Positions 2,134-47,857 of a stretch of DNA of 64,000 bases are shown piece by piece. The notes under the pieces were generated by a model. It searched no databases. It was given only the letters and a program-made list of their open reading frames with translations, and had not been told where the DNA came from. The stretch comes from Actinokineospora diospyrosa (GTDB lineage: Bacteria > Actinomycetota > Actinomycetes > Mycobacteriales > Pseudonocardiaceae). The DNA is taken from positions 62,001-126,000 of the forward strand of contig NZ_JAMTCO010000003.1 of NCBI RefSeq assembly GCF_024171925.1. The letters are read 5' to 3'. The position numbers and the translations under genes are program-made. Position 1 is the first letter of the stretch. Each line of letters opens with the position of its first letter.

Positions 2134-2457
2134 CTGGCCAGCGTAGGCAGGTGGCCGCCCGCTGCGGGGATGGCGGCTTCGGGCTGTGGGTGGCTCGGGG
2201 GGTTGTGGATAACTCCCGGGCCTGATCCGGGGGGCGGTGGATGAGGGGACGGGTGGTGCGTGGGGGTGTGACACACGTGCGGGACCGCGAAGTAGGGCGG
2301 GGCCGTGCGTGTGGCTCGATGGGGCGAGCTCGTGGTGCGTGGAGCTCTTATGGCGCCTGCGTGGGCTGCAGCGGTGTGGCCGTGCTGGGGCTGGGAGTGC
2401 GGTCGGCTCGGTGGCGCCGAGCATCGACGTGGTCTGCGGTGGTTGCTAGTGCGGTGG

Positions 2458-2602
2458 GCTCGATGGGGCGAACTTGTTTTGCGCGGGGCCCCTACAACAC
2501 CCGTGGCAGGTCCGCACAGCAGGGGCCGAAAAGACTGGCCCTGCCGCGAGGAAACGCTACGGGTGTTGTCCCCCCGCGCAAAACAAGTCCGCCCCATCGA
2601 GC
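2458..2602. repeat. 145-bp structured inverted-repeat element, copy 1
   Basis: The 31-base outer arms (2458-2488 and 2572-2602) pair with one A.C mismatch. Inside are an 11-bp perfect helix (2494-2504 with 2559-2569) and a small hairpin around the loop CGAAAAGACT (near 2526-2537). A second copy, also exactly 145 bases, is at 47713-47857; hand alignment shows about 14 differences. No target-site duplication and no open frame specific to the element were seen. It could be a non-autonomous palindromic mobile repeat, a bidirectional terminator or a structured RNA; the sequence alone does not decide. Confidence 0.85.
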
Positions 2603-2682
2603 AGGGGTGGGGTGGTGGGGTTGGTGGGGGGTGTGCACAGCTGCTCTATCGAGCAGGGGGGTGGTGCCGCAGCTTCTAAGCA

Positions 2683-2716
2683 CAACGGTGCCTACCGCGA
2701 GCGGTAGGCACCGTTG
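2683..2716 (-). terminator. Intrinsic terminator of the ABC-2 operon
   Basis: A perfect inverted repeat (CAACGGTGCCTACCGC, 4-base loop, then its complement) lies about 25 bases beyond the permease stop. It is the likely end of the minus-strand ABC operon. Confidence 0.8.
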
Positions 2717-2740
2717 ACCTCGTATAGCCGGAGGGGTGGA

Positions 2741-47365: not shown

Positions 47366-47602
47366 GTTGTCCACAACGTCTGTTGCTGTCCACAGGCGCT
47401 GGTTGCTGCTCCTGTTTTGTCTGTGCCTATCGGTAGGCTGTATATCGGGGGCTCTTATGGCGGATGATCTTGTGGTGGCCCTTTTGTGGGGTTGAGTTGT
47501 CCACAACGTCTGCTGTTGTCCACAGGCTCTGTTCGCCGCTACTGTTTTGTCGGGGTGCGGCGGTAGGCTGTTTATTTGGGGGCTTTCGATCAGGTTGATC
47601 TT
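47366..47602. repeat. Two direct repeats, 130-bp period, with four DnaA-box-like sites
   Basis: Unit 1 (47366-47472) and unit 2 (47496-47602) share a TTGTCCACAACGTCTG start and a CGGTAGGCTGT...GGGGGCT...GATCTTG end. TTGTCCACA is at 47367-47375, 47497-47505 and 47516-47524; the fourth site (47386-47394) is CTGTCCACA. In each unit the two sites are 19 bases apart. TTGTCCACA is the preferred DnaA nonamer of Streptomyces (established). A TAGGCT that could be a -10 box lies in each unit. Confidence 0.8.
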
Positions 47603-47712: not shown

Positions 47713-47857
47713 GCTCGATGGGGTGGACCTGTTTTGCGCGGGGCCCCTACGACACCCGTGGCAGAACCGCAAAGCAGGGGCCGAAAAGACTGGCCCTGCC
47801 GCGCGGAAACGCTACGGGTGCCGTCCCCCCACACAAAACAGGTCCACCCCATCGAGC
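47713..47857. repeat. 145-bp structured inverted-repeat element, copy 2
   Basis: The 31-base arms are 47713-47743 and 47827-47857. Compared with copy 1, pair C2469-G2591 is T47724-A47846 here, T2474-A2586 is C47729-G47841, and A2496-T2567 is G47751-C47822. The A2471.C2589 mismatch of copy 1 is a proper G-C here. Three one-sided changes introduce A.C mismatches. The hairpin loop CGAAAAGACT is identical in both copies. Confidence 0.85.

What the first reader, a model, noticed from the sequence alone, without database searches (positions are those of the whole stretch)
2458..2602. A 145-bp self-complementary element with compensatory changes between its two copies
Two copies 45 kb apart are both exactly 145 bases and about 90% identical (about 14 hand-counted differences). 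Changes at paired positions include three full compensations (C-G to T-A, T-A to C-G, A-T to G-C) and one mismatch turned into a pair. Three one-sided changes give A.C mismatches. The inner helix (2494-2504 with 2559-2569) is perfect here, and the central hairpin loop is invariant. This is expected of a selected RNA or DNA fold rather than a decaying gene. No known RNA, IS or REP family comes to mind.
Basis: partly seen in the sequence, partly recalled or inferred. Interest (0 to 1): 0.85.

Follow-up and report, generated by a model that had tools for sequence, protein, structure and literature searches.

The report
Dispersed hairpin repeat in Actinokineospora
The 145-base hairpin is one of well over a hundred copies of a mobile, gene-free element that sits between genes in Actinokineospora bacteria, and the way its copies vary suggests that one particular strand, most likely as RNA, is kept folding; relatives in another genus sit beside genes of an uncharacterised protein family (DUF222).

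Summary
In detail: two 145-bp copies (2458-2602, 47713-47857), 14 differences, three double compensations. It is a family: 289 arms, so about 145 copies, in this genome; 15 of 16 Actinokineospora genomes and six genomes of five other genera match a covariance model; no Rfam match. In 1.6 Mb, 43 copies lie between called genes, 29 of 42 between convergent ones. The maintained fold is therefore on the window's minus strand. Copies are mobile: the ~510-bp insert at 2222-2735 is absent from 15 of 15 congeners; 4 of 9 copies in 400 kb face empty gaps in the sister genome. No RAYT and no clear target duplication was found. In genome G095 all 12 listed copies lie beside DUF222 genes. Best reading: an ERIC/NEMIS-like hairpin element acting as RNA, perhaps descended from hairpins of DUF222-type mobile genes. 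How it moves is open.

The parts
2458..2602 (-). Hairpin element copy 1 (class 1 context); maintained fold is on the minus strand
   Evidence: (R1 match C3:64458-64602 minus, E 4.5e-39)
47713..47857 (-). Hairpin element copy 2 (class 2 context); also present at the same place and orientation in sister genome G006
2222..2735 (.). Interval of the composite insert absent from congeners (approximate ends); a 7-bp direct repeat GGTGGAT lies at 2236-2242 and 2735-2741 but may be chance
   Evidence: heptamer read
2314..2457 (+). Two degenerate left units, each beginning with a copy of the hairpin's first bases (starts 2314 and 2406, the second by eye)
2603..2654 (+). Right unit ending in a copy of the hairpin's 3' end (TATCGAGC)
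2684..2715 (.). Perfect 15-bp terminator-like hairpin between the upstream gene's stop (2741, minus) and copy 1; inside the inserted interval
   Evidence: sequence; not in the shorter gap of A. terrae or G006
47367..47524 (+). Three TTGTCCACA (DnaA-box-like) sites starting at 47367, 47497, 47516 in the class 2 left module of copy 2
   Evidence: offsets -346, -216, -197
47417..47569 (+). Two PafBC/P1-promoter-like sites (47417-47439, 47547-47569; one mismatch each) reading towards copy 2, i.e. antisense to the maintained fold
   Evidence: consensus from a passage of PMC5656591
47861..48126 (+). Class 2 right array (~68-bp units TTGGCACC...GTCCAGG)

Best explanation
A dispersed, non-coding mobile hairpin element (MITE-like). 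Shown: high copy number, intergenic placement, lineage-specific gain of whole composites, compensatory change, and strand-specific pairing on the minus strand. Inferred: the minus strand is transcribed, mostly as read-through from genes whose 3' ends face it, and the ~31-bp helix plus the conserved asymmetric internal loop (GG / AGGGG) acts as RNA at the 3' side of genes, as a processing, stability or read-through barrier, the way ERIC and NEMIS hairpins do. Inferred with less weight: it descends from hairpins that accompany DUF222 genes in related genera, and expanded here without the protein.
For: Copy number and range. Intergenic: 0 of 43 copies in 1.6 Mb and 0 of 115 in a wider, partly selected set overlap a gene of my own caller; 29 of 42 in convergent pairs against 226 of 1206 gene pairs (p 1.6e-12; 1.9e-7 against the convergent share of intergenic bases). 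Mobility. Fold: 98.3% of cells paired, 17 of 38 pairs with both sides changed, 86 such cells against 18.6 in shuffles, 0 of 500; slid structures 35-46% paired. Strand: minus strand more stable in 110 of 113 unique copies of five species; on the sense fold 343 G.U and 14 A.C cells, 11 pairs with G.U in three or more copies against 1 with A.C. With the fold computed on the plus strand the bias keeps its direction: own copies A.C 31, G.T 10; own plus two relatives A.C 46, G.T 30. Between co-directional genes the fold's sense agrees with the genes in 29 of 42 (p 0.02). DUF222 link.
Against: No expression data. The gene-direction bias is weak and not significant in this genome alone (18 of 27, p 0.12), and the 42 are not all independent. 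Three of 8 distant relatives fold better on the other strand (L246, L249, L251). The only promoter-like motif found in class 2 copies reads the opposite strand. The G.U excess could also mark a single-stranded DNA hairpin or strand-biased C-to-T change; the shuffles do not model relatedness. DUF222 is absent from this genome, yet insertions here are lineage-specific. The DUF222 link, counted on the matches listed (39 candidates scored per genome, so incomplete), holds for G095 (12 of 12, within 400 bp) and G034 (2 of 2, but 902 and 966 bp away), not for G093 (0 of 7), G067 (0 of 2) or G066 (0 of 1), and for 2 of 6 in G069.
Confidence: 0.6

Rival explanations
1. Single-stranded DNA hairpin: the folded minus strand is the substrate of a transposition or recombination enzyme (as bottom-strand attC sites or HUH-transposon ends are; recalled), so the strand bias reflects mobility, not RNA.
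For: Mobile, no clear target duplication; strand-specific fold; in G095 a DUF222 gene lies between two inverted copies.
Against: Y1 transposase absent from 14 of 16 genomes of the genus, this one included (other enzyme families were not searched); no enzyme gene was seen with the copies here; the gene-direction bias, though weak, is better explained by transcription.
Confidence: 0.25
2. Selfish repeat without function in the host: arms homogenised by hairpin-templated repair or gene conversion give compensations; convergent placement is what selection against promoter damage leaves behind; strand bias is strand-biased cytosine deamination.
For: Species-specific cores inside one family suggest concerted change; intergenic 3' placement is common for tolerated insertions (PMC10969869 passages); the commonest wobbles of the outer helix are C-to-T on the sense strand.
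Against: Conversion would restore Watson-Crick pairs on both strands alike and would not give 343 G.U against 14 A.C; wobbles recur at pairs 12, 14, 25 and 27 in two or more species sets; helix and internal loop persist in other genera.
Confidence: 0.15
3. Convergent-gene terminator or fork/transcription barrier acting as a double-stranded DNA cruciform.
For: 63 of 110 copies between convergent genes; very strong inverted repeat; G-rich tandem arrays beside class 1 copies.
Against: A cruciform uses both strands equally, which the G.U/A.C asymmetry contradicts; no U tract follows the hairpin in the window copies (sequence); 29 plus 13 copies lie between co-directional genes.
Confidence: 0.08

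Closest known systems
ERIC / IRU repeats (127 bp, Enterobacteriaceae and Vibrionaceae)
   Same: Intergenic, tens to hundreds of copies, predicted single long stem-loop, affects neighbouring transcripts (PMC10969869 and PMC2267715, passages)
   Different: No sequence comparison with ERIC was made; here a conserved asymmetric internal loop and inner branched part, strand-biased wobble, flanking tandem arrays, actinobacterial host
Correia / NEMIS elements (Neisseria)
   Same: Hairpin MITE, >120 copies, can carry promoters, transcripts cut by RNase III at the arms (PMC10969869 passages)
   Different: No evidence of cutting here; no clear target duplication; promoter-like motif is antisense to the maintained fold
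REPIN / RAYT system
   Same: Inverted pair of arms, intergenic, of the order of 100 copies, species-specific populations (recalled; PMC3116915 seen in a listing only)
   Different: RAYT (Y1) gene absent here; arms ~31 bp and structured core
REP13E12 / DUF222 repeats (Mycobacterium and other actinobacteria)
   Same: In G095 the hairpin accompanies DUF222 genes at near-constant spacing; DUF222/REP13E12 is named as repetitive in a passage of PMC10589994
   Different: No DUF222 gene in this genome; no paper in two searches was seen to describe such a hairpin with 13E12

Membership tests
Non-autonomous MITE-like repeat | Short, non-coding, terminal inverted repeats, many copies | tested here: met
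Non-autonomous MITE-like repeat | Presence/absence at orthologous sites | tested here: met
Non-autonomous MITE-like repeat | Target-site duplication | tested here: inconclusive
   none clear at four empty sites; one 7-bp direct repeat at the window copy may be chance
Non-autonomous MITE-like repeat | Autonomous partner with the same ends in the genome | tested here: inconclusive
   The 43 copies over 110 bp in 1.6 Mb are all about hairpin length; five partial ones there and the rest of the genome were not checked for a long element
REPIN/RAYT | RAYT (Y1) transposase in the genome | tested here: not met
ERIC/NEMIS-type RNA hairpin | Transcribed and processed, alters mRNA | not testable with these tools
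   needs RNA data
Known Rfam family | Match above gathering score | tested here: not met
   whole window, gathering: none; 9 loci, E<=1: two sub-threshold hits and a SAM riboswitch in L250, none at a hairpin
DUF222 (13E12-type) element | DUF222 gene in or beside the element | tested here: not met
   absent from this genome; met in G095 for 12 of 12 listed matches, G034 2 of 2 within 1 kb, G069 2 of 6, not in G093, G067, G066

The most novel reading that the evidence does not exclude
The hairpin is the recognition part of a previously undescribed kind of mobile element in which a DUF222 protein acts on one folded strand (RNA or single-stranded DNA) of hairpin ends that flank its gene; in Actinokineospora the hairpin has gone solo, expanded to well over 100 copies per genome, captured tandem arrays and a DNA-damage (PafBC-type) promoter, and is retained as structured RNA at gene ends.
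Probability: 0.25. Interest if true: 0.85.

Novelty: new variant of a known kind. Interest (0 to 1): 0.6.

Why it matters
It is a large, apparently undescribed family of structured repeats, with an unusually clean sequence-only signature of which strand is folded. If the DUF222 link is right, it gives a handle on what DUF222 genes, a multi-copy family of unknown function in actinobacteria, do. It also makes the question of whether bacterial hairpin repeats are kept as RNA or only as DNA directly testable.

Tried and rejected
REPIN/RAYT: no Y1 transposase here. Long arms as ends of an IS30-type element: in A. terrae two copies are interrupted after ~33 bp by IS30-like elements (HTH_38 in L043; L051 by eye), which looks like insertion into the hairpin rather than its source; both contigs end there, so not settled. 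DUF222 in this genome as mobiliser: absent. Rho-utilisation site (C-rich arrays on the minus strand of class 1): not pursued, because orientation between convergent genes is uninformative and class 2 arrays look less C-rich (by eye). DNA-damage RNA: 14 of 19 PafBC-consensus sites in 1.6 Mb lie 142-560 bp upstream of a copy and point at it, and 27 of 33 class 2 copies have one within two mismatches against 23 of 660 shuffles, but only 7 of 34 copies of the relatives do, and it reads the wrong strand for the maintained fold; left open. DnaA titration: 85 of 135 TTGTCCACA lie within 700 bp of a copy, but these are repeats of one module. Plasmids and phages: no match for copy 1. A replication-direction test in G006 was not finished because no origin was located. 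Target duplication: not established.

Full report
Observation. The two copies are real: 2458-2602 and 47713-47857, 145 bp each, 90.3% identical, 14 differences. The three A.C 'mismatches' are also there on the plus strand, but on the minus strand they are U.G, U.G and G.U pairs, and the one 'mismatch turned into a pair' is G.U to G-C. Both strands fold far better than shuffles; the minus strand better than the plus (-116.3 against -107.8 for copy 1, -115.9 against -102.5 kcal/mol for copy 2).

Family and host. The genome (G000, 8.1 Mb, 29 contigs) is in the genus of A. terrae: locus L053, fetched by name as A. terrae, is 100% identical to congener G012. BLAST with copy 1 scored 40 candidates, all full-length copies, of 247 first-look candidates; the 31-base arm with up to three mismatches occurs 141 times forward and 148 reverse, the reversed-pattern control 0, so about 145 copies. 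A covariance model (R1) from 34 copies of five sets (this genome, G006, named A. terrae and A. globicatena loci, G010; minus strand) finds 47 distinct places in 1.6 Mb of this genome, 41 of them above 130 bits. Match counts of other genomes may count both strands of one copy, since the palindrome also matches in antisense at lower score. Of 80 genomes drawn from the family, 9 match: three of this genus and six in five other genera, with 1-12 listed matches (39 candidates scored per genome, so lower bounds). No Rfam family matches at a hairpin; no plasmid or phage record matches copy 1. The DNA-level search had found 8 of 61 genomes, all of this genus.

Fold and strand. On the 34-sequence alignment the two helices (30 + 8 pairs) are 98.3% paired; 17 pairs have changes on both sides, 86 cells against 18.6 in shuffles, 0 of 500 shuffles reaching any measure, and sliding the partners leaves 35-46% paired. 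Relatedness is not modelled by the shuffles. Among 113 unique copies the minus strand is the more stable in 110, the plus strand in 3. With the fold computed on the minus strand, 33 pairs and 3711 cells hold 343 G.U and 14 A.C. With the fold computed on the plus strand the bias keeps its direction but is smaller: own copies (59 unique) A.C 31, G.T 10; own plus A. terrae and A. globicatena copies (89 unique) A.C 46, G.T 30. In the outer stem, wobbles recur at positions 12, 14, 25 and 27 in two or more species sets and at 4 in G010. The distant relatives share the layout (outer helix, small asymmetric internal loop, second helix, inner hairpin; the conserved letters around the loop were judged by eye), but only five of eight fold better in the model's sense, three in the other.

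Setting. Copies sit in larger composites. Class 1 (window copy 1) has ~52-bp units to the left that begin like the hairpin's own end, and right units that end like it. Class 2 (window copy 2; 33 of 43 copies in 1.6 Mb) has a left module with TTGTCCACA sites and, in 27 of 33, a PafBC/P1-promoter-like site, and ~68-bp right units (consensus tTGTCRgtg-8 nt-TannnT read in a passage of PMC5656591). In 1.6 Mb taken as whole blocks (the first 400 kb of contigs C1, C2, C3 and C7; the contigs were my choice), 43 copies longer than 110 bp, none overlapping a gene called by my own codon-usage caller; of 42 with both neighbours, 29 convergent, 12 co-directional, 1 divergent, against 226/755/225 of 1206 gene pairs. 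Convergent gaps with a copy have median 1109 bp (29), without 62 bp (197). In a wider, partly selected set of 115 copies (5 at sequence edges dropped, 110 left): 63 convergent, 29 co-directional with the fold's sense, 13 against it, 5 divergent; 29:13 gives p 0.02, this genome alone 18:9, p 0.12.

Mobility. The gene next to window copy 1 was found in 16 of 16 genomes of the genus. R1 finds the hairpin beside it only in this genome: none of the 15 other loci, with up to 1500 bases on each side, has a match; I read the gap by eye in 14 of them (all but G008) and saw none. Likewise an A. terrae copy (L053/L181) is absent at the same place in G005, G000, G006 and G009. Against sister G006 (85-94% identical in most blocks) over 400 kb of contig C3, of 9 copies four face short gaps without a copy (64458 = window copy 1, 156551, 359481, 372394), two are shared in place and orientation (109713 = window copy 2, 184608), one place has a copy in both but in opposite orientation (194959), one (150730) faces unrelated sequence, and one (294518) was not resolved. 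No consistent target duplication was seen. A Y1 transposase is absent here; other transposase families were not searched.

DUF222 link. L248, a 3.1-kb locus of genome G095, holds a DUF222 gene (Pfam PF02720, E 4.9e-21; Pfam reported no HNH domain) between two inverted copies of the hairpin. In G095 all 12 matches listed lie 298-392 bp from one of its 24 DUF222 matches: 11 are 345-392 bp downstream of the domain on the same strand, one is upstream on the opposite strand. By a rough independence estimate chance is negligible, though the 12 look like recent copies of one another. G034: 2 of 2 upstream of a DUF222 match on the opposite strand, 902 and 966 bp away. G069: 2 of 6. G093 0 of 7, G067 0 of 2, G066 0 of 1. 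DUF222 is absent from this genome. Of eight DUF222 loci fetched, two (L256, L261, both G034) held hairpins, three in all, that one search had not listed.

Reading. Shown: a high-copy, intergenic, mobile, non-coding hairpin whose minus-strand fold is conserved. Inferred: it is maintained as RNA at the 3' sides of genes, working like ERIC or NEMIS hairpins, whose effects through RNase E or RNase III are described in PMC10969869 (passages). A folded single-stranded DNA substrate is the main rival. The DUF222 origin is plausible but rests mainly on one genome. Literature: the results listed by searches showed no description of such a family in Actinokineospora or Pseudonocardiaceae; only passages of PMC5656591, PMC10589994, PMC10969869 and PMC2267715 were read.

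Noticed in passing
L043:2030-2370 and L051:580-911 (A. terrae): Two IS30-like elements of differing sequence (HTH_38 in L043; L051 judged by eye) interrupt the hairpin at the same point, after about 33 bases; both contigs end inside the insertion.
   Followed up: partly
L041, after 2222 (A. globicatena): A copy of the hairpin loses its last bases to what looks like an IS end (by eye); not tested.
   Followed up: no
G000 C7:44914-45952: A different intergenic repeat, about three ~350-bp units with GGAGGCCCTCCCCGTGCGGCCCC and GTTGTGGATAACC, stands where A. globicatena L060 has the hairpin.
   Followed up: no
1.6 Mb of G000: TTGTCCACA occurs 135 times, 85 of them within 700 bp of a hairpin copy, nearly all there in one orientation relative to it.
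   Followed up: partly
G000 C1, C2, C7, C11, C12, C13, C15, C16: Several contigs begin within 500 bases of a hairpin copy, so the element may break the assembly.
   Followed up: no
L053:2197-2259: A ~50-60-bp stretch inside the flanking query recurs many times in most congeners, a further dispersed repeat.
   Followed up: no
L031 against G000 C2:1-1050: Same intergenic place, hairpin composite in opposite orientation in the two species, suggesting repeated independent use of the site.
   Followed up: partly
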